Assembly: GCF_000375425.1 (NCBI RefSeq)
Contig: NZ_AQXG01000011.1
Coordinates: 53,727-93,903, forward strand
DNA from: Gracilimonas tropica DSM 19535
GTDB lineage: Bacteria; Bacteroidota; Rhodothermia; Balneolales; Balneolaceae
Direction of reading: 5' to 3'
DNA: 40,177 nt
The position numbers were made by a program, and so were the translations under genes. Shown in pieces: positions 8,994 to 17,631 of this stretch; position 1 is the stretch's first letter; every line of letters starts with the position of its first letter. The notes beneath the pieces were generated by a model. The model saw nothing but the letters and a program-made list of their open reading frames with translations. It was not told the DNA's origin and ran no database searches.

Positions 8994-9527
8994 ATGAAGA
9001 ACTTCTTTTTTATACTGATTTTTTGCGGAATCAGTCTTGCTGCAAATGGTCAGTCGGCGGATACGTATTTCCATAGTGGGGCTCAGGCATTCATCAATGC
9101 CGATCTGCAGCAAGCGATTCAGCAGGTGCAAGCGGGCCTGCAGCAATTTCCCAACAATCCCAAGCTGAATGCACTCATGGAAAAGCTGAAAGAAGAGCAA
9201 CAGCGTCAGCAACAACAGCAACAGAATCAGCAGCAGCAAGATCAGCAAAACCAACAGCAGCAGGATCAACAAGAGCAGCAACAGCAAGACCAACAGGATA
9301 AGCAAGAAGAGCCGGATCAACAAGAAAAAGATCAACAGCAGGGAAAACAAGATCAGGATGAGAAAAATGCTGAAGAAATGAATCCTGAGAACATGGACAT
9401 GCAGCAAATGAGCAAGGAAGAAGCTGAAAAAATATTACAGGCTCTTGCCCAAAAAGAGAAAGAACTCTTAAAAGAATTCAAAAAGAAAAAGACAGACGGA
9501 AGCGCCAAACATGAAAAAGATTGGTAA
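8994..9527 (+). CDS. Secreted glutamine-rich protein of the Bat operon (BatC-like)
   Basis: An N-terminal signal peptide (MKNFFFILIFCGISLAANGQ) precedes one TPR-like helical pair (YFHSGAQAFINADLQQAIQQ ... FPNNPKLNALMEKL). A low-complexity tract then runs from about residue 62 to 120, made mostly of Q with D, E, N and K, and a charged C-terminal helix ends the protein (MSKEEAEKILQALAQKEKELLKEFKKKK). This is the layout of BatC-type proteins. ATG 8994 is chosen because the signal peptide starts there; an in-frame TTG at 8973 would only add residues from inside the upstream gene. It overlaps batD by 17 bases, so translation is probably coupled. The tandem CAG/CAA codons make length variation likely. 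The molecular role is unknown. Confidence 0.75.
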   Translation: MKNFFFILIFCGISLAANGQSADTYFHSGAQAFINADLQQAIQQVQAGLQQFPNNPKLNALMEKLKEEQQRQQQQQQNQQQQDQQNQQQQDQQEQQQQDQQDKQEEPDQQEKDQQQGKQDQDEKNAEEMNPENMDMQQMSKEEAEKILQALAQKEKELLKEFKKKKTDGSAKHEKDW

Positions 9528-13507: not shown

Positions 13508-13540
13508 AAAAGCGCGACTCTTTTGGGGTTGCGCTTTTTT
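13508..13540 (+). terminator. Rho-independent terminator of the M20 dipeptidase gene
   Basis: A 10-base-pair stem (AAAGCGCGAC at 13509-13518 with GTTGCGCTTT at 13528-13537, one G-U wobble) is followed by a T run, 27 bases after the stop codon. Confidence 0.88.
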
Positions 13541-13833
13541 ATTGGTCCGAAAAATTGGAAAACCTCAAGAACCAAAGCTCCAGTTTTTTACTTCAGGCTG
13601 ACATCAGGCAAGAATTCGTCCGACCACTGAAAAGAATAATTGGTTGAGCATAATTTGAAATCTTAAAGGACAAAGAAAATAAATCCCGAAAGAAGAGGTC
13701 CGACGATTATGTTGGAGCAAGTAGTTATTCTTTGACATGAGTGAAGCCTCCCTTTGTCTTCAGAAAAGATTCAATAGGGCATTTCGCTGCATACGAGAAA
13801 AAAAGCTCCAAGAACTTATGCCCAACAAAAATT
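13541..13833. other. Gene-free stretch carrying the second inverted-repeat element
   Basis: Nearly 300 bases between the dipeptidase terminator and the propeller-gene stop. The only clear structure is the 91-base inverted-repeat element. A further GGTCCGA at 13545-13551 matches seven bases of its arm. No coding frame or RNA gene is apparent, and no terminator for the minus-strand island was found. Confidence 0.5.
13616..13706. repeat. Inverted-repeat element, copy 2 (TCGTCCGACCACT ends)
   Basis: The left arm TCGTCCGACCACT (13616-13628) is identical to copy 1 at 5826. The right arm AGAGGTCCGACGA (13694-13706) is its reverse complement with one mismatch. The element spans 91 bases, against 93 in copy 1, and its 65-base interior is AT-rich and non-coding. 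Confidence 0.6.
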
Positions 13834-15039
13834 TTATCGTGCTGTGAATTCAATGCTATACCTAACAATATTCCATTGGCCTGTATCTTCATTTTTCTCC
13901 CGCTGATAAAAATAACCGCCTTTTACTACTACATGATTCTCCAAACTCGCCGGATCGCTGTATTTATCTCCTGGCCATCTAAAAGTGGCTATTAGCTCGC
14001 CTGATTCTTCCAAAACCCACCATTTGAAAAATTCATTATCTCCAGTAAAAGTAGAGATCCAAAACCTGTTTTCATCATCCAGCAAAATGCTATTAATGGC
14101 CGGCCATTTTTCAGGCAGATCTACATTTTGAGCGATGTTTTCTACCATTTCATTTGCAGAGTGTAAAGCATCTTTCCGACGAACTTCTTGTAATTCGTAT
14201 GGATAAAAGAATGCACTCAGGTAGTCCCCATCATAATCTAATTTCTTAACCAGAAAATCCCGGCTGTCCACTATATAAAAGTGATCTTCCTTAGAAGGAA
14301 CAAAGAAATGCCGTTCGAAAAAAGGGAAGTACTTCATAAACCGAACCTGCATATTCCCAACTTTATCTTCAGAATTAGAATGGACAAATTTTTTAGCTTT
14401 GAGTTCAGCCAATTGGTCAGAAACAATTTCTAATTCTGAATTCAACCTGTAATACTTTTTCATTCTTCTTCCAGAATTATTTATTTGGGGTGATTCCTGG
14501 AAAGCAGCGATGATCTCATTAGGTGAACTCAAGTAAAATTCATGGGGACGCTTATCGGATAGCTCCAAAATATCTTTCCATTTTTGAGAATCTGTCAGCA
14601 CTGTTTTTTCCTGCTTTAAAGTAGCTGTTGAATACAACATGATGCGTTGCAACTGACTGTCATAAAATAAAAGCTGCCCTGCATGAACTTGTAAATTACT
14701 TAGACTTAAGAACTCAGCAGGGCCTTTTCCTTCTCCAGCTATCTTTTTAAGATACGATCCATCAGGATTGTAGACATGAAGAGAACGGGAACCCCATCCG
14801 GCATCAGCAATATATACCCGGCCGGAATCATCTACGGCAAACTCGCCCATAGAAGAGAAAAATAGCTGTTCTGTATCCCCAAATTTTCCGTTGGGCTTCA
14901 AAAATAACGTATCCTCAGAGGTTTTTTTAGAATAAACTGTTACGTTATTCAAATCTTTGAATTCTTGAACCGATCTATTTTGATCCTGAACGGAACAACC
15001 GACTAAAACGAGTGTTAAGGCACTTAGAAAAATCTTCAT
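13834..15039 (-). CDS. 6-bladed beta-propeller lipoprotein (unit B)
   Basis: Predicted outer-surface or periplasmic lipoprotein. The signal ends in the lipobox LVLVGC (Cys15). The body carries NHL/6-bladed propeller repeats: FAVDDSGRVYIADAG, HVYNPDGSYLKKIAGEGKGPAEF, LLFYDSQLQRIMLY and SILLDDENRFWISTFTGDNEFFKWWVL. The ending GGYFYQREKNEDTGQWNIVRYSIEF is shared with the paralogue at 15301-16500, and the motif G-E-G-x-G-P-x-E-F is typical of the family. In Bacteroides such proteins are often neighbours of small Cys-containing secreted peptides (NVEALA type). Here the neighbour upstream is a collapsed C39/peptide remnant. The function is unknown; partner of the secreted peptide is a guess from position. 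Confidence 0.85.
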   Translation of the reverse strand: MKIFLSALTLVLVGCSVQDQNRSVQEFKDLNNVTVYSKKTSEDTLFLKPNGKFGDTEQLFFSSMGEFAVDDSGRVYIADAGWGSRSLHVYNPDGSYLKKIAGEGKGPAEFLSLSNLQVHAGQLLFYDSQLQRIMLYSTATLKQEKTVLTDSQKWKDILELSDKRPHEFYLSSPNEIIAAFQESPQINNSGRRMKKYYRLNSELEIVSDQLAELKAKKFVHSNSEDKVGNMQVRFMKYFPFFERHFFVPSKEDHFYIVDSRDFLVKKLDYDGDYLSAFFYPYELQEVRRKDALHSANEMVENIAQNVDLPEKWPAINSILLDDENRFWISTFTGDNEFFKWWVLEESGELIATFRWPGDKYSDPASLENHVVVKGGYFYQREKNEDTGQWNIVRYSIEFTAR

Positions 15040-15119
15040 GATTTAAGTATAAAAGTACATGATGAGATTAAATGTTAACTCAACATGCACTCAAGTTTTT
15101 TGGTCACATTAGTATTTGA

Positions 15120-15167
15120 TCAGGACCCACAAGTAGCCCAATAGCCACTTACCCCTCCTTCATAGGA
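15120..15167 (-). pseudogene. Tail of a second Cys-rich peptide gene, 5' part lost
   Basis: A minus-strand frame reads SYEGGVSGYWATCGS and then a TGA stop. It aligns with the C-terminal part of the intact peptide at 16560-16805 (SYENDEGQYVSGYCCSSCG): S-Y-E, G, V-S-G-Y and C-G match in order, and the DNA around TATGAA and GGCTATTG is alike. It lies directly behind, and in another frame from, the truncated C39 gene, so a deletion appears to have removed the rest of the C39 gene and the leader of this peptide. The alignment is short, so this is a reasoned call rather than a certain one. Confidence 0.5.
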
Positions 15168-15300
15168 TGGAAGTTTCCCCTGAACTTTTCCTCAGCTTTT
15201 CTAAAGAATATTTTCTACCGTGGTGTTTGGCTACCATACGTAAGCAAGTAGGGCCGCAATCCATTTGATCATGCTGTCGGTAGAGCTTGAAGGGCTTCAT
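15160..15300 (-). pseudogene. Truncated C39 peptidase/ABC exporter gene (unit B)
   Basis: A 46-codon frame encodes only the start of a peptidase-containing ABC transporter: LYRQHDQMDCGPTCLRMVA at 6-24, then KHHGRKYSLEKLRKSSG. The catalytic Cys (C15 in MDCGPTC) is intact. Intact proteins of this type have about 700 residues, so nearly everything is missing, including the catalytic His and Asp, the membrane domain and the ATPase. The DNA is very similar to the other C39 remnant at 17076-17445 up to the point where it breaks off. Its ATG follows the propeller stop directly (TAAATG), the arrangement expected of an operon peptide-propeller-exporter. Confidence 0.8.
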
Positions 15301-16500
15301 TTAGCGCTTAACAAATTCAATCTTGTATTTTACAATCCGGTCTATCCCTTTATCCATATTAAATTCATGACTATAAAAATAGCCTCCCCTTATAATTCTG
15401 TTTGGTTTTGAAATCACTGAATATGATTTTTGACTTCCCTTTTCCTTGAATTCAGCTATCAGCTCATTATCCTTATTTAAGACTGCCCATTTAAACGTAC
15501 TATCATTATTTGTAATCATTGAGACCCACAGTTGACCTTTATCATCAAATTCAATGGTATGGAACTTTTGCCAGGTTTCGGGTAACTCATATTTGCTTAA
15601 GGTTCGTTCTTCATTAGGATATAGTTCAAAATCATCCATATCCACAGGAACATCTTTTAACTCAAAATGAATAGTTGATTCATAATCACTATCTCTATTG
15701 AGTATCTTTATTTCAGGTTTACCCGTCCAAGTGGTAAAGTACCGTCCATCTGTACATAAGGCTAATAGTGAACTCCTTGTGAAAGGCATCGTGAATGGTA
15801 AATTCAATGGCCCGTCCGGATAGTAATAGGAAAAGCTTTTTAGCTGTAAAACTGGGTCAGGTTGAATCACTCCATCATTAGAAAGGCGAAAGTAAGTCTC
15901 TTTAGGTTCATGTTTCAGTCCTTCGCCGGGCAAAGATCTGTAACCAATTAGCAAATCTCCGTTCCTTTTAGCCAATACTCTATTGGCTTTACTATTAACA
16001 GGAATTTGATTGCTTTCCTGTAGTAAACTGTGGTCAATAGAAATATCTTTTACGTGTGAAAAATCATCCAATGAAAAAACTCCAATTTTCTGTAGCCTTG
16101 GATCAAAAAGAATTAGGTTATTACCCCATATGTCCATTGATGAAATACCCTCATACTCTCCCGGACCTCTTCCCTCATTAGCAATTCGGGTTATAAATTT
16201 ACCCTCTGAATCAAAAACATAGACACCTACCGTTCCTGGAATTGATGCTGAAATAAAAATCCTCTCTTCATCATCTACAATAAAAGTATTTATATAGCCC
16301 TTTATAAATACCTCATCATTGCTCTCAAATGTTCTTTCCCGAAACAAGTATACCGAATCAACATGATTCCTATTTAACTTTATAGTTGTTAGGTTTTCAA
16401 TATCCCTATGCTCGATGTTTTTATTATTAGTTTTTTCCAAAACTTCTTTATCACAAGAGCATATTATGCATATTATTAGCAATAAGTAATTAAAATTCAT
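15301..16500 (-). CDS. 6-bladed beta-propeller lipoprotein (unit A)
   Basis: Paralogue of the protein at 13834-15039. The lipobox is IICSC after a short hydrophobic signal (NYLLLIICIICS). Propeller repeats include FIVDDEERIFISASI, YVFDSEGKFITRIANEGRGPGEY, LILFDPRLQKIGVF and IEFDDKGQLWVSMITNNDSTFKWAVL, with the closing strand GGYFYSHEFNMDKGIDRIVKYKIEF. The two proteins share the G-x-GPGEF and GGYFY landmarks and near-equal length (399 and 401). ATG at 16500 is taken as start; the upstream TTG at 16509 adds only three codons. It lies 59 bases behind the Cys-rich peptide gene on the same strand, so co-transcription is likely. Confidence 0.85.
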   Translation of the reverse strand: MNFNYLLLIICIICSCDKEVLEKTNNKNIEHRDIENLTTIKLNRNHVDSVYLFRERTFESNDEVFIKGYINTFIVDDEERIFISASIPGTVGVYVFDSEGKFITRIANEGRGPGEYEGISSMDIWGNNLILFDPRLQKIGVFSLDDFSHVKDISIDHSLLQESNQIPVNSKANRVLAKRNGDLLIGYRSLPGEGLKHEPKETYFRLSNDGVIQPDPVLQLKSFSYYYPDGPLNLPFTMPFTRSSLLALCTDGRYFTTWTGKPEIKILNRDSDYESTIHFELKDVPVDMDDFELYPNEERTLSKYELPETWQKFHTIEFDDKGQLWVSMITNNDSTFKWAVLNKDNELIAEFKEKGSQKSYSVISKPNRIIRGGYFYSHEFNMDKGIDRIVKYKIEFVKR

Positions 16501-16559
16501 TTTGAACAATTTAAATCTTGCTGCTTATTTATAGCAGCAAGATTTTTGGTTATTACTTG

Positions 16560-16805
16560 TCAGCATGCAGTTGTATTAGAAAACTGACCTGTTCCACAAC
16601 TTGAACAACAATAGCCTGAAACATATTGGCCTTCATCATTTTCATATGAACTGAAATAGGCTGATTGAATACTATCAACAGATTGAGTACTACAAGCTGA
16701 ATAACCAGCAAATGATCCATCTGCATTTCTCCATGCCACTCGGCAACCATCACCTGCCTTTATGTTTTTCATTTCACTTCTACTAAGTAATTGTAATGCT
16801 TCCAT
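16560..16805 (-). CDS. Cys-rich peptide with double-glycine-type leader
   Basis: An 81-residue protein with the build of an exported peptide precursor. The N-terminus LLSRSEMKNIKAG fits the leader pattern LSxxEMxxIxGG (here AG at the cleavage site), the substrate signal of C39 peptidases. Cleavage after residue 18 would free a 63-residue core, starting DGCRVAWRN, with six cysteines (C21, C38, C66, C67, C70, C81) and the dense knot GYCCSSCG. The core is rich in Ser, Gly, Tyr and Asn and has no hydrophobic helix. C39-type exporter remnants lie on both sides, and a propeller lipoprotein gene follows. No modification enzyme is present, so disulfide bonding is the most likely processing. No strong SD. 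I do not recognise the family. Confidence 0.72.
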   Translation of the reverse strand: MEALQLLSRSEMKNIKAGDGCRVAWRNADGSFAGYSACSTQSVDSIQSAYFSSYENDEGQYVSGYCCSSCGTGQFSNTTAC

Positions 16806-16839
16806 ATTATTTTCTCATTTATTTGAAATTAAACCCGTT

Positions 16840-17079
16840 TCATCCAGCTTTTACCAAATCGGGTACAGGTTTTTGACCCCGGTTTTTCAATACCGCTCTT
16901 TGTTGAACAAGCTCCCTCAATAAAACCAATTTATTTTTCCTACGCTGGAAATTTCCCCTGAAGTTTTCCCTGAATTTTCTTGTGAATTTTTCCCTGAAAT
17001 TATCCCTGAAATTATCCCTGAATAATTTTCGGCTATGTAGTTTGGTCACAGTATTCAAACAAGTATGGATACAGGCCAA
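16840..17079 (-). CDS. Doubtful basic repeat-containing frame
   Basis: A 79-codon ATG frame starting in the decayed tail of the C39 remnant. Its middle (FRDNFRDNFREKF ... FRENFRGNF) is simply a 12-bp DNA tandem repeat read as a four-residue repeat. The ending is RRKNKLVLLRELVQQRAVLKN. No signal peptide, no family resemblance and no SD are seen. It is most likely non-coding DNA between the C39 remnant and the peptide gene, listed because the frame is open across the repeat. Confidence 0.2.
   Translation of the reverse strand: MACIHTCLNTVTKLHSRKLFRDNFRDNFREKFTRKFRENFRGNFQRRKNKLVLLRELVQQRAVLKNRGQKPVPDLVKAG
16951..17022 (-). repeat. 12-bp tandem repeat, six copies
   Basis: Read on the minus strand, six 12-base units of the form TTCAGGGATAAT lie head to tail. 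Two are identical, three have one to four changes, and one (TTCACAAGAAAA) is more diverged. The last unit continues as TTCAGGGGAAATTTCC; nearly the same 16 bases (one difference) occur at the break of the truncated C39 gene near 15170-15186. Confidence 0.75.
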
Positions 17080-17445
17080 ACTCTATCGCTTTTAGTTTTA
17101 TATACCACCACAAAATGAACCTGTCCCAAAAGACAATACAGGAAGTGAAGCTTGCTCCTTTAATTGCTCCCAGCTCAGTTTTGCCCCTACCGTACGGAAG
17201 CCAATATTTTCTGCCGCTTCACTAATTCCTAATAGCGAAACGCCCTCTCGGTTAATTCCCGAACTTTTCCTCAGCTTTTCTAAGGAATATTTTTTACCGT
17301 GGTGCTTGGCCACCATACGCAGGCAAGTGGGGCCGTAATCTTTTTCTATTATGTATAAATAATTCTCTTTTATTCTCATTACAAACCACTGGTTTGTAAT
17401 GTATAAAGAAACTTCGGATTCCGGGAAGTTGAAAATAGCTGACAA
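17076..17445 (-). pseudogene. Decayed C39 peptidase domain of a peptide exporter (unit A)
   Basis: A 115-codon frame resembles the N-terminal C39 domain of bacteriocin-type ABC exporters: DYGPTCLRMVAKHHG, YSLEKLRKSSGINREGVSLLGISEAAE and GAKLSWEQLKEQ. The catalytic Cys is Tyr (TAC at 17337-17335 where the other copy has TGC). After KEQASLP the frame breaks. CIVFWD appears one frame away, and HFVVVYKTKSDRVW, which contains the family's catalytic His region, in a third frame (17117-17076), so two single-base losses are implied. Nothing of the membrane or ATPase domains follows. Residues before about 33 do not match the family, so the 5' end was also replaced. Confidence 0.85.
17377..17401. repeat. 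25-bp palindrome
   Basis: CATTACAAACCA, one central C, then TGGTTTGTAATG: perfect 12-base arms. It sits at the 5' edge of the C39 remnant, exactly where homology to the exporter family begins. It could be an operator for the island or a simple hairpin; nothing in the sequence decides. Confidence 0.6.
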
Positions 17446-17631
17446 AACTTATTTTGAGGCTGAGCCTGACTTTGTCGGCAGGCAGGCCTCAATTGGGCAT
17501 TCCGCAGCGGAGCTACTGAGCGAGTCTTAAGATATCTGTAACCAAGCACAGAGCACAAATCCCATACTTCCCACTATGCAGCAAAGAAAAATTTCACTAT
17601 GTTAAGCGCGAATTAGCACTCAACATCAGCC

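What the first reader, a model, noticed from the sequence alone, without database searches (positions are those of the whole stretch)
13834..17445. Tandem two-unit system: C39 exporter remnant, Cys-rich peptide, propeller lipoprotein
On the minus strand the order C39 gene - Cys-rich leader peptide - 6-bladed propeller lipoprotein is seen twice. Unit A has C39 remnant 17445-17076, peptide 16805-16560, propeller 16500-15301. Unit B has C39 remnant 15300-15160, peptide tail 15167-15120, propeller 15039-13834. The join TAAATG between propeller A and C39 B suggests an ancestral repeating operon. C39 peptidases cleave double-glycine leaders, and Bacteroides propellers of this type neighbour small secreted Cys-containing peptides. 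The combination suggests a peptide displayed on, or captured by, a propeller lipoprotein. I know of no described function.
Basis: partly seen in the sequence, partly recalled or inferred. Interest (0 to 1): 0.78.

Follow-up and report, generated by a model that had tools for sequence, protein, structure and literature searches.

The report
Secreted peptides paired with propeller lipoproteins
The window holds the decayed remains of a bacterial gene system in which small cysteine-rich secreted peptides are each paired with a matching propeller-shaped lipoprotein, probably a weapon with its antidote or a signal with its receptor.

Summary
On the minus strand lie two C39 exporter fragments, one open 81-aa leader peptide (six cysteines in its mature part), a relic tail of a second peptide, and two open propeller lipoprotein genes.

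In relatives (Balneolaceae) the intact locus has a disulphide-forming VKOR-thioredoxin gene, repeated [leader peptide - propeller] pairs, a C39 exporter and HlyD. The window's genome shows no C39 beyond these remnants and no VKOR homologue. The ~4 kb is absent from the same site in the nearest sampled congener.

Across relatives, mature peptide and downstream propeller match as families (r=0.39 between genomes; 0 of 2000 within-genome permutations reach it); the upstream propeller does not (r=-0.05). Leaders are more alike within genomes. Eight of 9 propellers like A (A included) follow a GYCCxSCG peptide; 0 of 73 others do.

That resembles a miniature polymorphic toxin-immunity system. Ligand-receptor pairing fits nearly as well; no activity is shown. 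One single-contig genome has three such peptides and the full export set but no DUF5128 match, so propellers are not needed for export. My literature searches showed no description of the pairing.

The parts
17125..17343 (-). C39 exporter relic A (residues 13-85 of a 729-aa exporter): 5' end lost, first Cys of DCGPTC changed to Tyr, frameshifted
   Evidence: that this Cys is the catalytic one is recalled
16948..17022 (.). 12-bp minisatellite, 6.2 copies, between relic A and the peptide
   Evidence: a 20-nt core occurs nowhere else in the genome at up to 2 mismatches
16560..16805 (-). Leader peptide A, 81 aa: leader MEALQLLSRSEMKNIKAG (16805-16752) and 63-aa mature part with 6 Cys
   Evidence: leader matrix score 48.5 bits (this leader was among the 45 that trained the matrix); homologue 65% identical over residues 1-73 in G004
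16513..16545 (-). Stem-loop between peptide and propeller, 13-bp perfect stem, 7-nt loop
   Evidence: -19.1 kcal/mol for the 68-nt stretch, z -5.9; perfect stems of 8 bp or more in 15 of 47 peptide-propeller gaps, shuffled mean 1.0, max 4
15301..16500 (-). Propeller lipoprotein A (DUF5128, 399 aa)
15160..15300 (-). C39 exporter relic B (residues 1-41), directly after the propeller A stop, as in intact operons
   Evidence: same direct junction in L033, L034, L071
15120..15167 (-). Tail of a second, truncated peptide (SYEGGVSGYWATCGS-stop)
   Evidence: likeness to peptide A by eye
13834..15039 (-). Propeller lipoprotein B (DUF5128, 401 aa), now without an open peptide gene before it
   Evidence: nearest relative among the propellers compared is L035:2678-3907 at 42%
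13541..17566 (.). Stretch absent from the orthologous site of congener G025, where M20 peptidase and ROK genes are 349 bp apart
   Evidence: lower GC inside than around

Best explanation
Shown by comparison: this is a decayed copy of a modular system. A C39 ABC exporter, an HlyD adaptor and a VKOR-thioredoxin protein are encoded with a set of leader peptides, and most peptide genes are followed by a propeller gene. The leader is more alike within a genome; the mature Cys-rich part varies and matches the downstream propeller as a family. Inferred: C39 cuts the leader after AG/GG during export, VKOR-Trx makes the disulphides, and the mature peptide acts on neighbouring cells as a microcin-like antibacterial. 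The cognate propeller, lipid-anchored in the envelope, binds the peptide and protects the producer. Propellers without a peptide would then be leftover or collected immunity genes. In this genome the exporter is dead and no VKOR was found, so peptide A is probably no longer exported by this route, and propellers A and B remain as orphan immunity or as passengers.
For: Recurrent anatomy in 27 stretches of Balneolaceae genomes, window included. 55 leader peptides, the 45 training leaders scoring at least 31 bits against a shuffled maximum of 0.8; 47 of 55 are followed by a propeller within 450 bp, plus one more pair added by hand. Mature-propeller correlation between genomes 0.393; within-genome permutations mean 0.063, max 0.327, 0 of 2000 reach it; leader-propeller -0.004 (45 pairs). 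Downstream 0.378, upstream -0.052 (the 29 peptides with both). GYCCxSCG upstream of 8 of 9 A-like propellers (window A included) and 0 of 73 others, one of which is counted twice. Leader and upstream DNA more alike within than between genomes (0.72 and 0.70 against 0.57 and 0.59), mature not (0.64 against 0.65). Even Cys number in 42 of 45 mature peptides, 24 of 25 cluster representatives. 36 of 82 propeller ORFs of 350 aa or more lack a detected peptide (35 of 81 without the double count; at least L031:2993 among them does have a leader-truncated one). Intercistronic hairpins. No invariant His across 18 aligned propellers, so no sign of a conserved enzyme site. Exporters of this type elsewhere often lie beside leader peptides (loose pattern); at least three arrays carry glycosyltransferase genes and two of these LanC-like genes, as bacteriocin clusters can (recalled).
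Against: No killing or protection is shown. G003, a one-contig genome, has exporter, VKOR, HlyD and three peptides but no DUF5128 match at E <= 0.001, and G010's exporter stretch has a peptide and no propeller (27 DUF5128 matches lie elsewhere in G010), so protection cannot always be by a neighbouring propeller. 40 of 40 exporter loci read outside the family have no propeller match, and 18 of 20 in Bacteroidales have none. Co-variation is between families only: within the four largest families r is -0.01, 0.49, -0.23 and 0.33, and between families 0.02. Tight linkage alone could keep pairs together. Peptide A stays open although its exporter is dead.
Confidence: 0.45

Rival explanations
1. Signal and receptor: the exported peptide is a strain- or group-specific pheromone, and the propeller lipoprotein is its surface or periplasmic receptor, used for kin recognition or density sensing.
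For: Family-level matching of peptide and downstream propeller is equally expected. Peptides without propellers (G003; loci) need no antidote if harmless. AraC-type regulators are encoded in L031 and L073.
Against: A lipoprotein needs a partner to pass a signal on. Of 27 other ORFs inside the arrays I scanned 9: three glycosyltransferases, two LanC-like proteins, two AraC-type regulators, one DUF6625 protein and one without a match; no sensor kinase, FecR or TonB receptor. The other 18 were not scanned. Many propellers have no detected peptide (36 of 82).
Confidence: 0.27
2. Propeller as partner in display, capture or folding of the peptide, for example holding the mature peptide on the cell surface or recapturing a metal- or cofactor-binding peptide.
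For: The nearest-fold list includes Bacteroides surface lipoproteins bound to vitamin B12 (8bmz, 8okv, 8bai). Pairing is family-specific.
Against: A complete export set exists without any DUF5128 match in G003 and without a neighbouring propeller in 40 of 40 loci outside the family, so propellers are not general folding or export parts. Hairpins after 15 of 47 peptide genes suggest unequal amounts (inference), which fits 1:1 display poorly.
Confidence: 0.13
3. Hitchhiking: peptide and propeller move as a block because they sit side by side, with no physical or functional pairing.
For: Gaps are short, and co-variation is only at family level.
Against: The leader, in the same gene as the mature part and so even closer, does not follow the propeller (r -0.004), and the upstream propeller (median gap 257 bp) does not follow the peptide (r -0.05).
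Confidence: 0.15

Closest known systems
Colicin V type (class II microcin) export: leader peptide, C39 ABC exporter, HlyD adaptor
   Same: Leader ending AG/GG, C39 exporter and HlyD in the intact relatives.
   Different: VKOR-Trx gene, several different Cys-rich peptides per locus, and a propeller gene behind most peptides; in the window the export parts are relics or missing.
Polymorphic toxin-immunity systems (PMC3482391, passages read)
   Same: Constant trafficking part, variable active part, specific partner gene next door, partners without toxin.
   Different: Very small peptides; [quoted passage not shown] toxicity untested here.
Glycocins such as sublancin (recalled)
   Same: Leader peptide, C39 exporter and thiol oxidoreductase; glycosyltransferases in at least 3 of the 27 stretches (L073, L080, L084).
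   Different: No glycosyltransferase seen in the window locus; even Cys number; propeller partner.
TIGR04149 peptides of Bacteroidota
   Same: A Bacteroidales locus (L113) has four leader peptides, each followed by a propeller, with exporter and HlyD. TIGR04149 gives 24.9, 16.1 and 13.6 bits for three of them (cut-off 25) and nothing for one. Two of its propellers were checked by Pfam and pass DUF5128.
   Different: The window peptide does not match the model, and I saw no radical SAM gene between its flanking genes (not searched by profile).
DUF5128 (PF17170) six-bladed propellers; PDB 4raa (BF0058), 3s9j (DUF4221)
   Different: No function known to me for either. The genome has 14 DUF5128 matches at E <= 0.001, 13 over the cut-off; near five others (L037, L038) my leader pattern flagged no ORF, and the remaining seven were not examined.

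Membership tests
Colicin V type peptide export system | Precursor with double-Gly-type leader | tested here: met
   Leader score 48.5 bits, shuffled maximum 0.8 (the leader was in the training set); ends AG, as 34 of the 45 training leaders do
Colicin V type peptide export system | Intact C39 ABC exporter in the genome | tested here: not met
   Own genome (98.8% complete): only the two remnants; in relatives 11 loci with a full-length exporter by my rule, one of them split between two frames
Colicin V type peptide export system | Antibacterial activity and immunity gene | not testable with these tools
   No assay
Polymorphic toxin-immunity system | Constant delivery part with variable active part | tested here: met
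   In relatives: leader and upstream DNA more alike within genomes, mature part not
Polymorphic toxin-immunity system | Partner gene specific to the variable part | tested here: met
   at family level only
Polymorphic toxin-immunity system | Toxicity and cognate protection | not testable with these tools
   No assay
DUF5128 six-bladed propeller | Pfam gathering score | tested here: met
   54.4 and 37.5 bits, cut-off 22.9
Glycocin | Glycosyltransferase in the cluster | tested here: inconclusive
   None recognised among the ORFs between the flanking M20 and ROK genes (by eye; the C39, peptide and propeller ORFs by Pfam); present in L073, L080, L084
TIGR04149 peptides | Match to the NCBIfam model | tested here: not met
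   Not among the matches of the window peptide at E up to 1

The most novel reading that the evidence does not exclude
Balneolaceae and some Bacteroidales carry an undescribed class of polymorphic peptide weapons: a constant leader is recombined onto ever-changing disulphide-rich warheads, each protected by a cognate beta-propeller lipoprotein. These would be the first beta-propeller immunity proteins, and the arrays of orphan propellers would be libraries of collected immunity.
Probability: 0.33. Interest if true: 0.8.

Novelty: new variant of a known kind. Interest (0 to 1): 0.6.

Why it matters
DUF5128 propellers have no function that I know of, and neither do the VKOR-linked Cys-rich leader peptides of this phylum. 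The pairing gives both a testable partner. If it is toxin and immunity, it adds a fold to the known immunity proteins and a route to narrow-spectrum peptides; if it is signal and receptor, it would be a peptide communication system in Balneolaceae and their Bacteroidales relatives. For the window alone the result is modest: the locus is decayed and was not found in the ten congeners sampled.

Tried and rejected
Fixed recombination point in the C39 gene: many C39 fragments end between residues 41 and 59, which suggested a site of cassette insertion. The DNA after the breaks shows different joints: to a VKOR end (L081), to propeller ends (L084, L087), to inner exporter parts (L073, L088). I treat them as relics of duplicated operons with independent deletions.

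Recent duplication of the two units: rejected, since only C39 aligns well at DNA level.

Propeller as a general export or maturation part: rejected by G003 and by 40 loci without propellers.

Peptide fold: the model is weak (pLDDT 68.1) and no solved structure matched at E <= 0.001. No PHROGs or PADLOC match at E <= 0.01 for the peptide or either propeller.

Fine co-divergence inside peptide families: not found. Lipobox: only 36 of 73 propellers with a complete N-terminus matched my pattern in the first 75 residues, so 'lipoprotein' rests on inspection for A and B and is open for about half of the rest. Surface or inner-leaflet location was not resolved.

Rows dropped or limits: pairs with mature part under 35 aa or propeller match under 60 columns were left out (45 pairs kept, one added by hand, L031:10229). 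All three odd-Cys peptides come from one genome (G071). Six of the 20 control stretches are short (five contigs under 6 kb) or one-sided (L257). 20 of 28 other-type exporters were taken as controls, 40 of 45 non-family genomes, and the best hits of the 20 top-scoring of 94 further Bacteroidales genomes. The hairpin control is 20 rounds of plain base shuffling. L032 and L074 overlap, so one propeller is counted twice.

Literature: searches listed no paper on the pairing; one search was swamped by unrelated matches and says nothing. Apart from passages of PMC10352776 and PMC3482391 I saw search listings only.
Full report
WHAT IS THERE. The minus strand of 13834-17445 carries, in order of transcription: a broken C39 fragment (homology 17343-17125), an 81-aa leader peptide (16805-16560), propeller A (16500-15301), a second C39 fragment (15300-15160), the tail of a second peptide (15167-15120) and propeller B (15039-13834). 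Both propellers pass the DUF5128 cut-off and both C39 fragments pass the Peptidase_C39 cut-off. A model of propeller A made from 18 sequences of the window and of loci from the named-genome scan has pLDDT 86.6 and is nearest to DUF4221, NHL and BF0058 propellers. The mature part of peptide A has six cysteines.

THE GENOME. The window lies in a 3.83 Mb assembly, 98.8% complete. The only C39 matches in it are these two fragments, and a VKOR-Trx query finds nothing (the tool notes that such an empty answer has no positive control). There are 14 DUF5128 matches, 13 over the cut-off. The congener with the most similar M20 gene, G025 (93%), has the two flanking genes 349 bp apart where the window has 4.15 kb; flank similarity ends near 13540 and begins again near 17567. 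In the fetched stretches of the other 9 congeners the ROK gene was not found. The stretch is lower in GC than its surroundings. Insertion here or loss there cannot be told apart with one such genome, but the peptide was matched in none of the 10 congeners searched (E <= 0.01).

THE INTACT SYSTEM. Searching 93 genomes of the family, own included, gave peptide matches in 10 (some weak) and C39 matches in 37. Named records show the family to be Balneolaceae (Balneola, Fodinibius, Rhodohalobacter). I read 27 stretches, window included, around the close exporters and peptides. Where complete, the locus holds a VKOR-thioredoxin protein, repeated [leader peptide - propeller] pairs, a C39 exporter of about 729 aa, often starting directly after or close behind a propeller, and HlyD. 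Of 11 loci with a full-length exporter by my rule, 9 have propellers, 10 VKOR and 10 HlyD (L034 and L075 are cut by contig ends, and L084's exporter is split between two frames). None of 20 (of 28) loci of the other exporter type in the same family has propellers or VKOR; Fisher p 3e-6 for 9 of 11 against 0 of 20, with six of those 20 stretches short or one-sided. Many relatives have broken exporters, as the window does. Most of the C39 fragments sit behind a propeller and join to varied downstream pieces, as expected for operon duplication followed by deletion.

PAIRING. A 17-residue leader matrix found 55 peptides (45 training leaders at least 31 bits; shuffled maximum 0.8), 47 of them followed by a propeller within 450 bp; one more pair was added by hand. 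In 45 pairs, similarity of mature peptides between genomes follows similarity of their propellers (r 0.393; within-genome permutations mean 0.063, sd 0.046, max 0.327, 0 of 2000). Leaders do not follow propellers (-0.004) or mature parts (-0.006). For the 29 peptides that also have a propeller upstream within 2.5 kb, the downstream one correlates (0.378) and the upstream one does not (-0.052). The signal is between families: r is 0.02 between clusters, and -0.01, 0.49, -0.23 and 0.33 inside the four largest. For the window's own type it is sharp: 8 of 9 propellers over 195 bits to propeller A (A itself included) have GYCCxSCG within 600 bp upstream; the ninth (L070) has a CCASCG piece in another frame; 0 of 73 other propeller ORFs of 350 aa or more do, one of them counted twice.

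MODULARITY. Same-genome peptides share upstream DNA (0.70) and leader DNA (0.72) more than different-genome ones (0.59, 0.57); the mature part does not (0.64 against 0.65) (68 and 1417 comparisons). In G004 two leaders are 98% identical while the mature parts are no more alike (0.64) than average. So the leader follows the genome, while the mature part and propeller change together. Mature parts have an even number of cysteines in 42 of 45 (24 of 25 cluster representatives, p 2e-6), fitting the VKOR-Trx gene. A perfect hairpin follows the peptide stop in the window (z -5.9) and in 15 of 47 pairs, the window's included (shuffled mean 1.0, max 4), which may keep propeller output below that of the peptide (inference). 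36 of 82 propeller ORFs of 350 aa or more have no detected peptide (35 of 81 without a double count); at least one of these, L031:2993, does follow a leader-truncated peptide.

BEYOND THE FAMILY. In a phylum sample of 296 genomes, 55 match the exporter's C39 profile at E <= 1e-25, 45 of them outside the family. In the best locus of 40 of these 45, 23 have VKOR, 37 HlyD, many have leader-like ORFs by a loose pattern, and none has a propeller match. In Bacteroidales 95 of 247 genomes match the L113 exporter at E <= 1e-20. Of the 20 best-scoring loci read, 2 have a peptide-propeller pair (L219, L220); L113, found through its propeller, has four pairs. So exporter, HlyD and VKOR are common, and the propeller pairing is an addition in Balneolaceae and some Bacteroidales.

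HOW IT PROBABLY WORKS. Export, leader cutting and disulphide formation follow from the named families. What peptide and propeller do is inferred. Matching families, leader exchange and propellers without peptides fit toxin and immunity. G003, a one-contig genome with exporter, VKOR, HlyD and three peptides but no DUF5128 match, speaks against propeller protection as a rule and leaves signalling open. I give toxin-immunity 0.45, signalling 0.27, linkage only 0.15, display or capture 0.13.

NOVELTY. [quoted passage not shown] Those of the Bacteroidales RiPP survey (PMC10352776) describe GG leaders and C39 exporters, and 'propeller' does not occur in its held text. The listings showed no paper on the pairing; one search was uninformative. 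Preprints and most subscription papers are not in that library.

Noticed in passing
window 17377-17401: Perfect inverted repeat (12-bp arms, 1 nt apart) just upstream of C39 relic A; possible terminator or junction.
   Followed up: no
window 16948-17022: 12-bp minisatellite with TTCAGGG core; a similar 33-nt piece lies at C39 relic B; core unique in the genome at up to 2 mismatches.
   Followed up: partly
L121: A contig filed as a Pleurocapsales cyanobacterium carries a peptide nearly identical to one in G044 and several propellers; it looks like Balneolaceae contamination.
   Followed up: no
L246, L250, L253: Three loci of the other C39 exporter type carry leader-like peptides with few or no Cys, Gly/Ala-rich, resembling class II bacteriocins.
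   Followed up: no
L073:11575-13531, L084:3025-5866, L080:13537-14577: Glycosyltransferase genes (all three) and LanC-like genes (L073, L084) inside peptide-propeller arrays, suggesting that some peptides are modified.
   Followed up: partly
L077, L086, G044 C1:216785-254502 and C12:29114-70177: Long arrays of propellers; no leader peptide found in L077 and L086, and dense DUF5128 matches on two G044 contigs.
   Followed up: no
window 9196-9325: Overlapping 12- to 39-bp tandem repeats rich in CAG/CAA.
   Followed up: no
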